Positions 26,598 to 52,321 of a stretch of 64,000 nt of DNA are shown piece after piece; the stretch's first letter is position 1; every line of letters starts with the position of its first letter. A program made the translations under genes and the position numbers. Origin of the DNA: Rhizodiscina lignyota (taxonomy: Eukaryota > Ascomycota > Dothideomycetes > Aulographales > Rhizodiscinaceae); contig ML978135.1 of NCBI GenBank assembly GCA_010015805.1, forward strand, positions 558,001-622,000, read 5' to 3'. The notes beneath the pieces were generated by a model. That model was not told where the DNA came from, did no database searches, and was given only the letters and a program-made list of their open reading frames with translations.

Positions 26598-27773
26598 CTA
26601 ATTATTGTTGTTGCAATCCGGGCACGGGACTGGCACATTCAGGTAGCATCTGTTGTTGTTGCAGTTGCGGTTGTCATCCTCCTCCTCCTCCTCTTCCTCT
26701 TCTTCCTCCTCTTCTTCCTCCTCTTCTTCCTCCTCCTCTTCCTCATAGTGCTCCGGATGTTCAGGAGGGCCGCCATGACCGCCGGGAGGCCCAAATGAAG
26801 GTGGGGGTGGCTGGAACCAAGGCGGGGGACCAGAAGGAGCGAACGGAGGTTGAGAGGGGCCCGATGGTGCTTGCGGGGGTTGAGGAGGTCCTGAGGGCTG
26901 CTCCTGAGATGGGGCACTAGGTGCCTCGAACGAAGGCTGCTCCTCAGCGGGGGGACTTGGTGGCTGGAACCAAGGTGGAGGCCCGGAGGGAGCGAACGAA
27001 GGTGGAGAAGGCGGAGCAGGTGCTGATGGTGGCTGCTGTGCCGCACGTGCGAAGGGACAATCGGGCTTGTCGTCCTCGCAGGATGGAGCTGAGGGGGCTG
27101 AAGGGCCTGAAGGAGCTGAAGGAGCAGTAGGTGGAGATGGATGTGACGGCGGCGCTGGATGTGCGAAAGGGCAGCCGTGCTTGCTGGCCTTGCAAGCTGG
27201 AGCTGGTGGTGAAGGAGGGGCGGCGCAGCTTGATGTTGTGTCGTCATCCGTTGAAATGGTAATAGAGACACACTTCTGGCCGGTGAGCGCCCTGAGGAGA
27301 TTCATTAGCTAATACAATGGTAGTAAAGGAAAAACGAAACCTTACTTGTTATAGATGTTCCACTCCTTGCTGTTCACAGGGCAGGCGTAGAATGCAGTGC
27401 TGTCGTTGTATGCAATGTCGCCATCCGACGTGATGGATGCACCAGTAGCGGCTGCATCAATGTCAGTTCTGTCATAGGGCAGTGCACTAAAGTATCACTT
27501 ACCAGTAGCACCAGCCTGGCACACCCACTGGCCATTGGGATCCGAAAAGAGGCAACCACGGCCCGAGTTGTCGTAAATGGCACCATCGCGAAGGCAGTAT
27601 GTCGCTGGCGAATAGCTACCGCCAATACGATTTTGGCCGTCAGTAGTCTGGCCGATGCTACCAGAAGCCGAGCCATGGGCCCACAGCGAGGAGCAGCACC
27701 CCTGCTGTCGCGGCCGAAGAGGCGAAGCAATACCCCCGAGGGCAAAGACGAAAGGTACGTATGCGTACTTCAT
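26598..27773 (-). CDS. Secreted Cys- and Pro-rich cell-wall-type protein with poly-Glu tract
   Basis: Three exons: 27503..27773, 27346..27451 and 26598..27291 (donors GTAAGT and GTAAGG, acceptors GCAG and TCAG). 356 residues. Residues 1 to about 16 form a signal peptide, followed by PLRPR. The N-terminal 140 residues match a fungal secreted domain: GCCSSLWAHGSASG, QTTDGQNRIGG, ATYCL, RGCLF, FYACP and WNIYNK, with about eight Cys. A Pro/Ser-rich region follows with internal copies (CPFAHPAPP and CPFARAAQQ; two SGPPPWFQPP blocks), then an unbroken run of about 24 Glu, and a Cys/Asn-rich end. It is likely a cell-wall or extracellular protein of unknown role. Confidence 0.82.
26688..26750. repeat. 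CTC/CTT microsatellite coding poly-Glu
   Basis: A run of CTC and CTT triplets on the plus strand, read as GAG/GAA on the minus strand inside the secreted protein gene. Mixed codons show it has been kept under some constraint or has aged; such tracts change length easily by slippage. Confidence 0.85.
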
Positions 27774-40071: not shown

Positions 40072-40740
40072 AAAAACTCAAGTCCTCCCAATGAGGAAAA
40101 TACCCCCGAAGGCTCCGAGTCCTTCTGAATACTACAACATCGATAAGCCGGCGCTTCAGACTGGTTTAACTTAGTAGCGAAGATCAGCATGGCAGTTAGG
40201 TATCACAGTTGTCCTTCGATATTCACTTACTCCAGAGATGCTGGGATGGCACATTACTGCATGACGCTTCCCTACACCAGGGTAGCTGCGATATATGTAC
40301 ATACTCGGGAGTCTCGACACTTGTTTCGAGACGTGAATAATAATAATAATTTATTCAAAGATATGAGTTCTCGTACCTCTCATTTCTCTTCCTTCCTGTT
40401 CATTAAGCCTGGCTACACGCCTTTCCTATACCGCTCTGCTCGATTCTGCTTACATTGCCCATCCTTCAACCTGTTACCAAAACACCCTTTCCCATAACCA
40501 TTCTTCATTCCAGATATGGTGCAGCAATTCACACCACTATGCAGTTCCATTCCTAATCGTCATGCGCAACCGAGCGTATGCGCGAGCTACGCGAGCCATT
40601 CTTCTCTATTCGGAGAATTCCGATTTCGTACTTCGATACCGCTGCTCGTAGCAGGTCCGACAAATACGAGAAGAAGCGAAAAGCGCCGCCGCAAGCCCAG
40701 AAACCGGGCTACAAATGACAATAAACGATCTTATCCGTCA
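40072..40740. other. Convergent interval with an AAT microsatellite
   Basis: About 670 bp between the P450 and the fusion gene, which converge. A short (AAT)n tract lies at about 40335-40350. No gene is seen. Confidence 0.5.
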
Positions 40741-43349
40741 TCATTCAGGTTCGAATCCGACGCCAGGAAACAAATTCCTCCCGTTCATTTCCAGTCCGAA
40801 ATCCAGCAAAGTTAATATTCGCTTCCGAACCGCACTCGCCAGCGTCCCAGAATCTCCTTCCAAACATCCCTTATCTTCCTTCGACTTCCCTAGCCGCGCA
40901 TGCCACGCCCACAGTCCGTGCAATCCTCCCGGGAATGGTTCTCTTCTTCCATCCCACCCGTCCTTCAGCCTGTACTTCCCCTTTCCTTCCTCTTCCCTAA
41001 CACACGCTTTTAGCGAGTGCTGGTCCTGGTCCTTCACGCCGAGCGCGACGCCGTCCATGAATGGCAGCGGGTGCCGATTTATGCCACAGTGCGTGACTTT
41101 GGCGCACATCATGAGCATGCCTTCATTGAAGACCCAGTAGAACAGGCCAGGTCGCGGGCCGTCTGGGAAGCGTTCATTGTAGAGAGTCTCGTTGAATGTG
41201 AGGCTGCATGTCGTGGAAAGGACAGCATTCGTGGTGCGGGTGTTCGGTGGACCGAACACGAGGAGGTTGTTGTTCCAGGAGGCATCGCCAAACTACATTA
41301 CTGTTAGAAGTCGTTGTTCTCAACAGTACATTTAAGCAGCATGGAGCAACTTACCGCTGGAGCAGAAGGTCCACTGCGAATTAGCGGCGTGAGGTCCCGT
41401 AGCAGTATCGTGTCCGAATCGACCCACACTCCGCCGTACTTGTCGAGTAGAAGATTGCGAACAATGTCAGACATGCTGTCCTTACGAAGCTTGATTTTCT
41501 TCGCATACTCCTTGTCTGACCACTCTGGCATGTTCTCAACACAGGTTCCCGCCGCTTCTTGATCCGGGTGGAACTCGCGGAACTCGATGTAGTGGCCCCA
41601 CTCCCCAGTCGAATATTTGTCGATCACGGCTTGCGGAATATCGCTCTCCATATGCCAATAGATCACCCGATGTCCATCGCCAAGTCGCTGCGTTGCAAGG
41701 AATGCCTCGATCGCGAGAACATTCGTTTCATGCCAGGGTCCACGCCAGAAGAAGTGGAATATAAAGCCTCCTGGAGAGACCGGATAGACCGGGCACTCAG
41801 ACTTGAGGAATTCGAGCTCCCAATCAACAAGTTGGCTGGAGCTTGGAGTGATGTGATTGCTCTTGACGAAGTTTTCGACACAATCGACGGGGTTGTCCGT
41901 CTCGCCCCATACCGCTGGTGTGATGTTGTGTGGCGTGAAGAAGCGGTGCACATCGTCCAAAATGTCTACAGTTTGTTGTTCTGTAGGTTGGTAATAAGAG
42001 ACGAGATATGCAAGTATAGCGATCATTCCGACTGCAGTGTATAGCCGTGTCGGCGTTGGGGCTGGAAGAGAGGGGCGTTCGATGCTATTATCAGTATTTG
42101 GGCTGATGTGGCCATTTAGGCCAGATTCCATGTTATCAGTATTCTGCCCTTCATTTTCTGTGGTCGTAGGTAGAGGCTGGTAGCTGTGTCTGCTCGGCTG
42201 TACGCTTGTATAATAGTTATATGCCCACGTGGAAATGCTGATTATTCCCGCGCCCCATACTGCCTTGACCGTGAGAGTCTCTGCTCGGAGATGCGGGAAC
42301 AGCATGCATTGCACGATTGCCACGGTCACCATGGAAGCCGAAGTGCCAGCAAGCTTGACTAGGTTGTCTTTCTTGCGGAGAATGTTTGCAACCACTAAGC
42401 CCGTGGCAGCGGTAAATATGATGACTGTAGTGTTTGCAAGAAGGGGCAGGCTGAGGTTCGGTTGGATGCCTTTGATGACGTCTTGTACGGAGACCGATCG
42501 ACTGATTCTTGCATCCATGATGGCAACACTAATACCAGAGAACAGAGTGCCCCACACGTAGAGCCAGAACTAAGAGCAAAAGGTCAGTCTCGACCTCACA
42601 CGTCAACTGATATGTCCACCTTACCTGTGCTGTCCAGAAGGGGATTGGCTGCTTCATTATCAGCTCCGTGTATATGCTTGTGAACCCAGAGATGATGGCA
42701 ATGGTCAGTCCGATAATGGTTCCCGTCAAATACTGGCCGCCAGTTGCGTTACCGTCATCCCCATACCCATAGCTCATGCCTATTAGCGCCGACAGGCGAT
42801 CAACGAAAGCCATTGGGTTCTGAAAAATGAGGAGGCCAATGGAAAGACATGCCAGTGATAGCCATGGCCTCCAGTCCAGTAACCTTCGAACAATGAGATG
42901 ATGTAAGATCGCGGTGATTGGGAGCTTGGCAAGGACAGCAGCCTGCAGCAATGAGGGTGTCGTATACTGTAGACCAATGAGGTATAGAATGTTATTGGCA
43001 AAGTAGAGTAACGCAGGAAAGGCGTAGAGTGTGTATCCTTTCAGAAATCGGCTCCTTCCAGGCGACTCTTTTAAGTTGACGGCGTCGATAAAATCCCTTA
43101 GCGTCAAAGTACCAGTCTTTCTCCGCAGACTACGGAGTAAAAAGAACGATGCGAATAGAAGTTTGACAACTTCCGCTCTGGCGCAATGTTAGTGGCGTCT
43201 TGCATCATATTCACGATGACCACGTACCCAAATGTGATGAGAGTCGACGAAATCAGTACATTGGATTGCAGAGCGCCATACAAAAGAACTGTTCTAAGGG
43301 TATCAAAAGCCACGAACGCCGGAAGGAAAAAGTAGTGGTTGTAAGTCAT
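40741..43349 (-). CDS. Nucleotide-sugar transporter fused to a DXD glycosyltransferase
   Basis: Four exons: 43228..43349, 42625..43177, 41355..42569 and 40741..41292; 813 residues. Introns are GTACGT...CCAG, GTAAGG...TTAG and GTAAGT...GTAG, all phase-consistent. Residues 1 to about 350 are an SLC35A-type nucleotide-sugar transporter: AEVVKLLFASFFLLRSLRRK, LLYFANNILYLIGLQYTTPS, GWRP-like DWRPWLSLACLSIGLLIFQN, and later helices GLTIAIISGFTSIYTELI, LWGT-like YVWGTLFSGIS and AVWGAGIISISTWAYNYYTS. A 50-residue linker and an extra helix (TAVGMIAILAYLVSYY, about 403-418) lead to a glycosyltransferase of the DXD/GT32 type: LRKDSMSDIVRNLLLDKYGG then VWVDSDTILL (DXD at 608-611). One exon encodes both the transporter end and the GT core, so the fusion does not rest on a splice guess. 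Confidence 0.85.
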
Positions 43350-44450: not shown

Positions 44451-45568
44451 TTAACTGATGAAACATAAGCATCCGAGACCGATATAGAAAATAAACAGCG
44501 GGTATACGGCAATAGCAACGCGATTTCTTAGGACGCCAGAGCCACCAAGGATACTGACACCTGCTGCGAGCGACCACAGGATCAAGACTATGTATACGGG
44601 GATGCGCGCAATCCAGTAGAGGTGGAAAGCTGAGAGGATCGAGGCGATTACAAGAGGGAAGATGGTGTAACCGATGATGCAAACGGATTGGAAGAACGAA
44701 CTGCAACGTAGTCAGTTTTCGCATCTCTGATACGTCGCTGGATGAGATGGCATACATGTTCCCTCCAAGAAGCTTGATCTGCAAAGTCACAACGGCTTCG
44801 CCGACCCAAACCATTGTGAAAACGCCGGAGAAGACAAGCTGCTTCTGGTCTTCGTGTGCAGACATTGAGAGGAAGAAGCTGAGCAGAAGACAGAACAGCA
44901 ACGGGCCCCTTGACGAGTATTAGCAAATTGTTCGAAAGGTCGTTTTGGATGATTGTACCATAAATCCCAATCTCTCAAGCCCTCGCTCATGCCTCCTTGC
45001 AGCACGACGTCGGCATCTGGCCATCTGCCAACAAGCCCTCTGAGCCTGTCCGTCACGTTCCCCTCTCCGCCCATAAGGCCTTGAGCAGCTTCTCCTCTCT
45101 CCTCTCCGCCAATACCGCCGCCTTCTCTCATAAGCATGCCGCCAAGGAGATATTTAGGCCATAGCACAAGCATCATCTTCTCCCACACAGCCTTCAGGTC
45201 TCGTGACAACGTTTCCCAGACGCTCTCGTCAATTGTGTTCGTAGGTGCTCTCCGGTCTTCTCCCGGTATTTGCGATGTGAGATAGTTCTGAGTGCTGCGT
45301 GAGGAGCCTTGAGCTTGTCCGATGTTGCCCGTCAACGGGGCGCGATCGGAGGTACCAGAAGGATTAATAGGATCGTCGAGGTCATCGAGAGTTGCTGCAT
45401 AACAGTCAGCATACTGTTTATACCCCCTCAAGCGGCATAGAGGTTGAGAGCAGTGGACATACCGTCGTCGGGGTCGATGAGGTCGCGCTCAATTGCGTCG
45501 TTGTCAAAGTTGCTGTAAGGGTTGGCGGAGTTACCGCCACCAGATGAAGATGGCATCATGGCTGCCAT
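44451..45568 (-). CDS. YIP4: YIP4/YIPF6-type Golgi membrane protein
   Basis: Four exons: 45463..45568, 44959..45394, 44756..44908 and 44451..44700 (donors GTATGT, GTACAA and GTATGC; acceptors GCAG, CAAG and GCAG); 314 residues. A soluble N-terminus includes NTIDESVWETLSRDLKAVWE and KMMLVLWPKYLLGG, followed by LRDWDLWGPLLFCLLLSFFL, the Yip1-domain entry. Five hydrophobic helices follow, including VFTMVWVGEAVVTLQIKLLG, SVCIIGYTIFPLVIASI and NRVAIAVYPLFIFYIGLG. Yip4-type proteins bind Rab GTPases and act in Golgi/endosome trafficking. A Gly/Glu-rich insertion (about residues 105-135) is unusual in length but in a loop. Confidence 0.9.
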
Positions 45569-45853: not shown

Positions 45854-47249
45854 ATGCCGGAAGAAAAGATTCTGGACGATATATCACATCGACGGTATAA
45901 TCCGCTACGAGGCAGCTGGTTGTTGGTCTCGCCGCATCGGACGAAACGGCCATGGCAGTATGATTTCACGTGTGAAAAGTTGGGACGAAAGAAGAGCTGA
46001 TGCATGGCACAATATAGAGGACAGCAAGAGGCGCCGAGTAAAACCACGCTTCCAGAATATGACCCTTCAGTACGAATACTCTTCTGTGAATTTCTCCGGT
46101 GCCGTTTCTGAACAGCGTCCAGTGCTACCTCTGTCCGGGCAATAAGCGGGCGCAAGGCGACACCAATCCCAAATACGAAAGCACATTCGTATTCGTGAAC
46201 GACTACAGCGCTGTGAAAGAGGAACAAGCAGAATATGCCGCTCATGATCAAGATGGCAGTATGTCTTTCTAGCTTTCTCAACAAGTGTCCAGCAATGCGC
46301 CGGTACTCACGATTGTATCCAATCCAGCACTCTCTACACGTCTTCTGCGCGCCGAAGCAGTAACAGGGAAATGTTATGTTCTCGCTTTCACTCCGTCGCA
46401 CAATCTCACTCTCGCCGACCTATCTCCCGCGCAAATCCTACCTATCATCACCGCCTGGACTCGAATTTATACCGCACATCTCTCTCCGCACTCCCCACTC
46501 GCTGCACTTGCATCGTCTACCACTCTCCAGCCTTCTAGCCATGATGCCGACGTCGCAACACCCAATGCGCAATACAAATACATGCAAATTTTCGAGAACA
46601 AGGGCGCCGCGATGGGTTGCTCGAATCCGCACCCACACGGACAAATATGGACAACCACAGGCATGCCAGAGGAACCAGGCATTGAACTGCACAACCTGCA
46701 GAAATATAGGAGAGAACAAGGAGGTGCGAACCTGCTTGAAGATTATGCGGCGCTGGAGAGTGACAAGAAGGAGAGAACGGTGTTCGAGAATGCGACCTTC
46801 ATCGCAGTATGCCCGTGGTGGGGGATATGGCCATTCGAAGTAATGGTCATATGCAAGAAGCACAAGCTTAGTCTCGTAGATCTGGACGATGCCGAGCGAG
46901 AAGGACTGGCAGAGGTGCTAGCTGAGGTGACTCGAAGATACGACAACTTGTTCGAGACCCAATTTCCATACAGCATGGGATTACATCAGGCACCATTGGA
47001 GGGAACAAAAGAGGAAATAGAAGCAAGTCATCTCCATATACACTTCTATCCTCCGCTATTGAGAAGTGCGACGGTACGAAAGTTTTTGGTTGGGTATGTA
47101 GAGATAGAGTGGACTCATCCAAAAGGAGCTAATGCTAACCCACATGCAGGTACGAACTGATGGCGGAGCCGCAGAGGGACATCACCCCAGAGCAGGCGGC
47201 GGCACGGTTACGTGATTGCGGTGGAGAGTTGTACAGGAGAAAACTCTAG
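45854..47249 (+). CDS. GAL7: Galactose-1-phosphate uridylyltransferase
   Basis: Five exons: 45854..45957, 46018..46069, 46123..46258, 46328..47093 and 47150..47249; 385 residues. Joins were fixed by family sequence: [80 protein letters not shown]. The active site [13 protein letters not shown] holds the nucleophilic His of the HPH motif, and [15 protein letters not shown] is a conserved metal/His region. It exchanges UMP between UDP-glucose and galactose-1-phosphate in the Leloir pathway, in the cytosol. The intron at 46259-46327 was chosen over a shorter in-frame option of 27 nt. GH27 alpha-galactosidase lies 3.3 kb downstream. Confidence 0.95.
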
Positions 47250-50584: not shown

Positions 50585-52321
50585 ATGATGAAGCTGCTGA
50601 GATCGTTGCAATTGGTTGCTCTGACGAGCTTCGCGAGCGCGTATATCACCAAAGATGGGAAGGTTATAATACCTGGGGCGTCTAGTTTCAACGGTTTAAA
50701 CCTCGTACCGCAAATGGGATGGGATAATTGGTATTGATAGCGCAGAGCTTAATATCTCGAGCTGATATTGACATTGGACATAGGAATGCATTCGGATGCA
50801 GCATAAACGAGACTCTGGTGCTCAATACAGCCCAGAAAATGGTCGACTTTGGCCTCCGCGATCTCGGCTACAACTACGTCGTCCTCGATGATTGCTGGTC
50901 TGAAGGACGAAACTCGAGTGGATATCTAGTCCCCAACCAGAAGACTTTCCCACATGTACGTCATATCCTCGGTATTTTCTGTGATCGAGTACACGCGGTT
51001 GACATAGGTCGTTACAGGGCATGAAATATGTCGCCGACAAGGTTCACGACCTGAATATGAAATTCGGCATGTACTCCTCGGCTGGTATCTACACTTGCGG
51101 CAAATATCCAGGCTCCCTTGGCTATGAACAGAAAGATGCAGACGTTTGGGCAAGCTGGGGTGTCGACTACCTAAAGTACGACAACTGCTACAATCAGGGC
51201 CAGTCTGGTACCCCGAAACTCTCCTTCGACAGATACAATGTCATGTCACAAGCATTGAACAAGACGGGCAGGAAGATTCTCTATTCATTGTGCAACTGGG
51301 GCGATGGTAAACTCCTCGTGACTCGAGCTGTTGGTGTCTGAGCACTTACTGAGATCTCCTCAAAGATAATCCTTTTGATTGGGCATACACCATTTCGAAC
51401 AGCTATCGTATGAGCGGCGATATTTACGACAGTTTTGATCGTCCAGATTCCCGATGCCCATGCACTGAGGCGATCGGATGCTCCTGGCCGGGATTCCACT
51501 GCTCAGTAATGAATATCTTGAACAAGATGGCAGCAATTCAATCACGCTCACAGCCTGGCGCCTTCAATGACATGGATATGCTCGAGGTCGGCAATGGCGG
51601 ACAAAGCGGTGCGTTCTCGAGTCTTGCCCAACTTCTAATTCAGAATCGTGCATGGGTGCTTACACATATCGCAGACGATGAATACAAAGTGCACTTCTCG
51701 ATGTGGGCCATGAATTCCTCTCCGCTTCTCATGGGCACAAATGTCTTGACGCTCACGCCCGCGAACCTGGCGATTTACTCCAACCCAGCAGTCATTGCGC
51801 TCAACCAGGACCCTTCCGGTAGCGTTGGCATCCGCAAGTGGCGCACAATCACAAAGGATGGCGGCGAAATTGCTTTGTGGACGCGTGAGATGAACAACAG
51901 CGATACCGTCATCGCTCTCATCAACGCGGCAAACAGCACCATGACGTTGACTGCAACAGCGGCAGACATTTTCTTGGACCAGAGCACAGCCGGAAGTTTC
52001 GCGCCCGCGCCTGAGCTCTCGGAGTCATGGGATGTGTACGATCTCTGGGGCAACAGAATGTCGAATGATGAAGCTGCGACTGTCTTGAACGGTACGGCTC
52101 CGACAATCGAGGCGACTAGCAACAGTACGACGAGGTATAATGCTACCGCGTTGAGCTATGCCGATGGCCTGAATGCCAATAATACGGCGCTGTTAGGCAC
52201 CAAGGTTGGAACAATGGCACCGCATGGAAGCTGGAGTGCGAAACTTGATCGCCACAGTATTGGACTGTTTAGGTTGCGGCAGGCTTCGAATAACTCAAAG
52301 AGGAAGAGAGACGAGCTATGA
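50585..52321 (+). CDS. Secreted GH27 alpha-galactosidase
   Basis: Four exons: 50585..50730, 50784..50955, 51018..51306 and 51366..52321; 520 residues. A signal peptide covers about residues 1-19 (ends SFASA). The (beta/alpha)8 barrel starts [33 protein letters not shown] is the second conserved block, the nucleophile Asp is in [13 protein letters not shown], and the acid/base Asp is in [18 protein letters not shown]. The C-terminal beta-sandwich region is rich in N-glycosylation sites. It releases terminal alpha-galactose from oligosaccharides and galactomannan. The start could also be the second Met (50588). The galactose made would feed GAL7, located 3.3 kb upstream. Confidence 0.95.

What the first reader, a model, noticed from the sequence alone, without database searches (positions are those of the whole stretch)
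40741..43349. Nucleotide-sugar transporter fused to a glycosyltransferase in one protein
One 813-residue product combines a 10-helix SLC35A-type transporter, a linker, one additional transmembrane helix and a DXD glycosyltransferase. The extra helix would place the catalytic domain in the Golgi lumen, on the side where the transporter releases the nucleotide sugar. Import and use of the donor would then be physically coupled. The exon 41355-42569 encodes the end of the transporter and most of the transferase without a stop, so this is not two genes joined by a wrong intron. I do not know of a described protein of this plan.
Basis: partly seen in the sequence, partly recalled or inferred. Interest (0 to 1): 0.8.

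Follow-up and report, generated by a model that had tools for sequence, protein, structure and literature searches.

The report
Sugar transporter fused to glycosyltransferase
A fungal-type gene appears to encode a single protein that both imports an activated sugar into the Golgi and carries an enzyme that could attach that sugar, two jobs normally done by separate proteins.

Summary
Splicing three short introns gives an 813-residue frame at the stated coordinates. Pfam places a nearly full-length SLC35A-type transporter at residues 30-343 (E 5e-18) and a DXD glycosyltransferase at about 575-622, with two related models above cut-off. Exon 3 (42569-41355) runs open from transporter helix 7 through a 53-residue linker and an 11th hydrophobic segment to beyond the DXD motif. 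No stop, frame-breaking intron-like site or polyadenylation hexamer separates the halves. AlphaFold2 on exon 3 gives a disordered linker, a low-confidence helix, then a largely confident GT-A-like half domain. Charges and cysteines fit a lumenal enzyme. Bacterial and phage-like relatives of the enzyme were found; 27 of 28 ORFs read are too short to hold a transporter as well.

The anatomy is well supported; coupled import and use is inference. No fungal collection was on hand, so conservation of the fusion and its presence in protein databases are untested. Papers seen describe transporter-transferase complexes in mammals; none that ten searches listed was seen to describe a natural fusion.

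The parts
43228..43349 (-). exon 1: Met1, transporter TM1 and start of TM2
   Evidence: splice signals and frame
42625..43177 (-). exon 2: transporter TM2-TM6, including K125, which aligns with Lys124 of a CMP-sialic acid transporter chain
41355..42569 (-). exon 3: transporter TM7-TM10, linker, TM11, stem and first half of the transferase with DXD, one open frame of 405 codons
40741..41292 (-). exon 4: second half of the transferase (including W760-H761) and stop codon
43178..43227 (-). intron 1, 50 nt, GTACGT..CTAAC..CAG
42570..42624 (-). intron 2, 55 nt, GTAAGG..CTGAC..TAG
41293..41354 (-). intron 3, 62 nt, GTAAGT..CTAAC..TAG, inside the transferase
42051..42209 (-). linker, residues 346-398, rich in P/S/T/N, no dibasic pair; holds Met372 (codon at 42131)
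   Evidence: pLDDT 30-41 over most of it
41991..42050 (-). extra hydrophobic segment TM11, about residues 399-418
   Evidence: hydropathy 1.34 at 401-419; helix 398-418 in the model, pLDDT about 41-53
41412..41420 (-). DXD motif (DSD, residues 609-611) in KYGGVWVDSD

Best explanation
A single Golgi (or ER) membrane protein made of a complete SLC35A-type nucleotide-sugar transporter joined through a flexible cytosolic linker to a complete type II glycosyltransferase. The transporter ends in the cytosol after helix 10; helix 11 brings the chain back across the membrane, so the catalytic domain lies in the lumen, where the transporter releases its cargo. The likeliest working is that the transporter half exchanges a UDP-sugar (UDP-Gal or UDP-GlcNAc, by family membership) for UMP while the tethered transferase spends the donor on a glycoprotein, glycolipid or cell-wall glycan, so that supply and use are made together and kept in one place. 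Shown: frame, domains, motifs. Supported by prediction: topology. Inferred: one transcript, compartment, substrate and functional coupling.
For: Open spliced frame of 813 aa with three well-formed introns. Both halves pass Pfam cut-offs. The transporter aligns to solved CMP-sialic acid transporters (best E 1.4e-8 over 85-332; two more over 22-343) and keeps the two lysines that pair with Lys124 and Lys272 there (K125, K297), reported to coordinate the phosphate (PMC6508934, passages). The transferase keeps 24 of 38 positions that are at least 90% conserved among 26 bacterial and viral relatives, DXD included. Hydropathy: twelve peaks in the transporter, some overlapping, which I merge into ten helices, plus one at 401-419 with +1 net charge before it and -3 after; eight of ten cysteines lie after TM11. 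The model of exon 3 has no secondary structure at residues 348-397, a helix at 398-418 and a half domain at about 496-625 mostly with pLDDT near 90, whose best Foldseek neighbours are UDP-sugar GT-A enzymes (fold class recalled).
Against: No RNA or protein data. No fungal relatives could be examined, so conservation of the fusion is untested. TM11 fell below the 1.4 hydropathy cut used first, as did several transporter helices. The transporter part and TM11 have pLDDT about 34-63. Foldseek gave no match at E 0.001 or better (best 1.5e-3, TMq 0.20) and its list also holds potassium channels and other unrelated chains. Fourteen of the 38 conserved positions differ, including two in the C-terminal WHWHN motif of the relatives (A759 for H, A762 for N). 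Met372 has a strong start context (AACATGG), as an independent transferase would. The linker's codon bias alone does not exclude non-coding DNA (35 of 1446 windows). Three of five sequons lie in the transporter part, so sequons do not discriminate. Nothing in the sequence ties the transporter's cargo to the transferase's donor.
Confidence: 0.55

Rival explanations
1. The fusion is real, but the transporter half serves mainly as a Golgi anchor or retention signal for the transferase; it transports nothing, or another sugar, and the transferase draws on the bulk lumenal donor pool.
For: A flexible 53-residue linker does not force the two active sites together. In mammals MGAT1/2 also bind SLC35A2 and SLC35A4, not only SLC35A3, and the authors call the reason unclear (PMC6453868, Discussion part 1 of 2 read).
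Against: The transporter keeps the two phosphate-binding lysines and a nearly complete profile match, which a mere anchor would not need.
Confidence: 0.25
2. Two proteins from one locus: the transferase is also, or only, made from its own transcript starting near Met372, and the long frame is a relic or a read-through.
For: Met372 has A at -3 and G at +4; residues 372-813 alone would make a type II transferase.
Against: The transporter half has no stop of its own, and none of the three polyadenylation-like hexamers scanned lies in the gene; the only one between 43349 and 40301 on this strand is at 40355, after the stop. Six in-frame Met codons come between Met1 and Met372, so leaky scanning is unlikely. 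In the intron scan (40-130 nt) the one candidate touching the linker, 42228-42103 with a lax donor, is 126 nt and keeps the frame.
Confidence: 0.15
3. An assembly or sequence error joined two genes.
For: None found; not excluded, since no second assembly or reads were available.
Against: The junction lies inside one open exon with the same frame on both sides, the window holds no N, and the linker reads like a low-complexity hydrophilic tail followed by a membrane anchor.
Confidence: 0.03

Closest known systems
SLC35A nucleotide-sugar transporters (PF04142; solved CMP-sialic acid transporters)
   Same: Nearly full profile match, hydrophobic segments for ten helices, the two phosphate-binding lysines
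   Different: They end soon after helix 10 (recalled); here the tail continues into a transferase
Transferases with the Gly_transf_sug / Caps_synth signature (GT32-like; Och1-type initiation-specific alpha-1,6-mannosyltransferase; bacterial and phage-like stand-alone relatives)
   Same: DXD motif in a YGG.W.D.D context and a GT-A-like half domain; type II anchor is the usual Golgi plan (PMC9368800 passage)
   Different: Golgi transferases normally begin with a short cytosolic tail (same passage); here that tail is a whole transporter. 27 of 28 relatives read are 236-336 residues long and carry no transporter
Mammalian SLC35A2/A3-MGAT and SLC35A2-B4GalT1/B4GalT4/UGT8 assemblies
   Same: Transporter and transferase held together so that supply could be coupled to use (PMC9368800 passages; PMC6453868 abstract and Discussion part 1)
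   Different: Separate proteins in non-covalent complexes detected by proximity methods
Kluyveromyces lactis UDP-GlcNAc transporter and GlcNAc-transferase genes, recalled as contiguous
   Same: Linkage of a transporter and a transferase for one sugar
   Different: Two genes, not one; recalled from memory only, one search found no paper with that phrase in the library

Membership tests
SLC35A / PF04142 nucleotide-sugar transporter | profile match above the curated cut-off over most of the model | tested here: met
   65.6 bits against 27, profile 34-315 of 315
SLC35A / PF04142 nucleotide-sugar transporter | ten transmembrane helices | tested here: inconclusive
   twelve hydropathy peaks of 0.9 or more at 7-341, two pairs overlapping, merged by me into ten; no dedicated predictor was run
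SLC35A / PF04142 nucleotide-sugar transporter | lysines on TM4 and TM9 that coordinate the phosphate | tested here: met
   K125 pairs with Lys124 and K297 with Lys272 in the alignment (positions); roles from PMC6508934 passages
SLC35A / PF04142 nucleotide-sugar transporter | transport of a nucleotide sugar | not testable with these tools
   needs an assay
GT32-like Gly_transf_sug transferase | PF04488 match with DXD | tested here: met
   26.4 bits against 23; PF05704 also 30.2 against 24.5; of 6 members of A2, 6 match PF04488 and 5 PF05704
GT32-like Gly_transf_sug transferase | assignment to one CAZy family | tested here: inconclusive
   Caps_synth scores above Gly_transf_sug; no CAZy library on hand; PDB profile hits are clostridial toxin glucosyltransferases (best 7e-5), YeGT, and Och1-type at 0.0047, several over only 24-40 profile positions around the DXD
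GT32-like Gly_transf_sug transferase | GT-A fold | tested here: inconclusive
   only the exon-3 half was modelled, mostly pLDDT near 90 with 60-79 at residues 566-595; Foldseek best E 1.5e-3
Golgi type II transferase topology | single anchor, catalytic domain in the lumen | tested here: inconclusive
   segment 401-419, charges +1/-3 and eight cysteines after it fit; low pLDDT for the helix; location not tested

The most novel reading that the evidence does not exclude
A natural covalent nucleotide-sugar channelling unit: one Golgi protein that imports the donor and spends it, the fused form of the transporter-transferase assemblies inferred in mammals, and a direct way to test whether donor supply in the Golgi is local rather than from a shared pool.
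Probability: 0.4. Interest if true: 0.78.

Novelty: new variant of a known kind. Interest (0 to 1): 0.62.

Why it matters
Whether nucleotide-sugar transporters feed particular transferases directly, or only fill a common lumenal pool, is described as unsettled; the evidence so far is association of separate proteins (PMC9368800 passages; PMC6453868 Discussion part 1). A gene in which evolution has joined the two would be independent evidence for a functional link and would give a single protein on which coupling can be measured by cutting the linker.

Tried and rejected
Relatives of the fusion: the search for related loci with exon 3 in viral contigs (21 pattern matches, 0 confirmed) and genome contigs (7, 0 confirmed) and with exon 2 in viral contigs (31, 0 confirmed). 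These collections are viral and bacterial/archaeal by description, so this says nothing about fungi. No whole genome is held for the window. phmmer with the transferase alone found nothing in the PDB up to E 10; profiles reached YeGT (0.0012), clostridial toxin glucosyltransferases (best 7e-5) and an Och1-type enzyme (0.11, 0.0047), which I take as shared membership of a broad DXD superfamily, not as a sign of toxin function. NCBIfam gave one hit, to a PTS transporter model, E 0.12, taken as noise.

Literature: ten searches. Several matched more papers than were listed (267/20, 47/10, 21/15, 893/25), and for most papers I saw only the listing, so absence is claimed only for what was seen. In PMC3111387 and PMC6952808 I read the found passages, in PMC2705460 none of the terms asked for occurs in the main text; none describes such a fusion. 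Papers under other licences are not in the library.

Rejected: two genes joined by a wrong intron (the junction is inside an exon); cleavage in the linker by a Kex2-like protease (no dibasic pair, and the linker should be cytosolic). Intron-like sites elsewhere in exon 3: the strict pattern gives four candidates besides the three real introns, all at 41485-41357, after the linker; they would remove the DXD region and were taken as chance. A link to UDP-galactose through the nearby GALT ORF (46273-47157) and alpha-galactosidase ORF (51353-52318) was considered; a Yip1 gene lies between, and without relatives to compare it stays a hint.

Caveats on counts: relatives in A3/A4 were found with patterns holding KYGGVW, so conservation of those columns is partly by selection. 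One search read 28 of the 33 loci; L018, L032, L033, L034 and L047 were not translated. A3/A4 hold 26 of the 28; L021 (longer) and L026 were left out.

Full report
Observation. The minus-strand gene at 43349-40741 was rebuilt from its splice signals. The three introns of 50, 55 and 62 nt have GTACGT, GTAAGG and GTAAGT donors, CTAAC or CTGAC branch-like sites and CAG or TAG acceptors, and none is a multiple of three, so the frame depends on them; Met1 is preceded in frame by a stop codon. That the source is a fungus is my inference from intron style and gene content; the record is unnamed.

Domains. Pfam gives PF04142 nucleotide-sugar transporter at 30-343 (5.3e-18, 65.6 bits, cut-off 27), PF05704 at 581-615 (30.2 bits, cut-off 24.5) and PF04488 at 575-622 (26.4, cut-off 23). 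phmmer aligns the transporter to three distinct sequences of solved CMP-sialic acid transporters, best E 1.4e-8. In the alignment to 6oh4, K125 pairs with residue 124 and K297 with residue 272. The mouse paper says lysines on TM4 and TM9 (Lys272) coordinate the phosphate, and that docking suggests the conserved Lys124 would meet the beta-phosphate of UDP-sugars in the UDP-Gal and UDP-GlcNAc transporters (PMC6508934, passages; that 6oh4 belongs to this work is recalled).

Is it one gene? Exon 3 runs without a stop from transporter helix 7 (residue 226) to residue 630, beyond the DXD. The intron scan, limited to 40-130 nt, found no frame-breaking candidate that touches the linker; the one lax candidate there, 42228-42103, is 126 nt. 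Four strict candidates at 41485-41357 lie after the linker and would remove the DXD region. Of three polyadenylation-like hexamers scanned, the only occurrence on the gene strand between 43349 and 40301 is at 40355, after the stop. Codon bias trained on eight other ORFs of the window is highest in the gene's frame, of the three frames on its strand, in every 40-codon window printed (stops penalised). With stops neutral the linker scores 0.020, the transporter 0.028, the transferase 0.104 and the intergenic mean is -0.109; 35 of 1446 overlapping intergenic windows reach the linker's score, so for the linker alone this is only suggestive. Against the fusion, Met372 has a strong start context, and no transcript data exist here.

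Topology. Twelve hydropathy peaks of 0.9 or more lie in the transporter, two pairs overlapping, which I merge into ten helices; one more is at 401-419 (mean 1.34, against 1.35, 1.37 and 1.29 for the peaks I assign to TM1, TM3 and TM7), with +1 net charge in the 15 residues before and -3 in the 15 after. The highest later peak is 0.89. Eight of ten cysteines lie after TM11; so do two of five sequons, which does not discriminate. With the cytosolic C-terminus of these transporters (recalled), this puts the linker in the cytosol and the transferase in the lumen. AlphaFold2 on exon 3 alone, with 26 transferase relatives and none for the transporter, gave mean pLDDT 58.5 and pTM 0.40: transporter helices at about 34-63, no secondary structure at residues 348-397 (pLDDT about 30-41), a helix at 398-418 (about 41-53), and a half domain at about 496-625 mostly near 90, with 60-79 at 566-595. 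Its first Foldseek neighbours are UDP-sugar enzymes (UGGT, SetA; LgtC further down), but the best E is 1.5e-3 with TMq 0.20, and unrelated chains such as potassium channels also appear.

Relatives. A pattern scan brought 14 viral loci, profile-guided scans 8 bacterial loci of 74 candidate stretches and 25 viral loci of 74; some viral contigs recur. Of the 33 loci were translated: 27 give proteins of 236 to 336 residues, too short for a ten-helix transporter as well, one of them (L020) cut by the end of its contig; one (L021) is a 661-residue bacterial protein whose N-terminal region I did not identify. The other five were not translated. Identity to the fungal domain is 22-29%. Of 38 positions at least 90% conserved among 26 relatives, 24 are kept, including S592, R596, the DXD and W760-H761; 14 differ, among them two of the C-terminal WHWHN motif. 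Relatives were partly selected by the KYGGVW motif. The fusion itself could not be looked for in fungi: no such collection is on hand.

Meaning. In mammals SLC35A2 and SLC35A3 are reported to associate with MGATs, and SLC35A2 with B4GalT1, B4GalT4 and UGT8 (PMC9368800 passages); one group proposes direct hand-over of the sugar and says further studies are needed (PMC6453868 abstract and Discussion part 1). A covalent natural form would be independent support. None of the papers listed by my ten searches was seen to describe one; this covers open-licence PMC and capped lists only, and unnamed predicted proteins of this plan may well sit in fungal databases. The donor is open: family membership suggests UDP-Gal or UDP-GlcNAc; a GALT ORF that begins 2.9 kb upstream, beyond a Yip1 gene, is a weak hint at galactose.

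Verdict. The protein plan is probably real (my estimate about 0.8 that the fused protein is the main product). Coupled import and use is the likeliest working but unproven; anchoring without coupling is the main rival.

Noticed in passing
46273-47157 +: Galactose-1-phosphate uridylyltransferase ORF (both Pfam domains, N-terminal one partial), an enzyme that makes UDP-galactose, beginning 2.9 kb upstream of the fusion; alpha-galactosidase ORF at 51353-52318 +.
   Followed up: partly
44454-44711 -: Yip1-domain protein (Golgi membrane family, recalled) between the fusion and the GALT ORF.
   Followed up: no
26601-27308 -: ORF with a Pro/Ser-rich region and a long run of glutamates followed by an Asn/Cys-rich end.
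   Followed up: no
L021 1768-3750: Bacterial 661-residue ORF in which a relative of the transferase follows another, unidentified N-terminal region.
   Followed up: no
L003, L006, L007, L010, L012 and others: A compact KYGGVWVDMD glycosyltransferase of about 300 residues recurs in IMG/VR viral contigs; in some loci the neighbouring ORFs look like sugar-modifying enzymes (by eye, no search run).
   Followed up: partly
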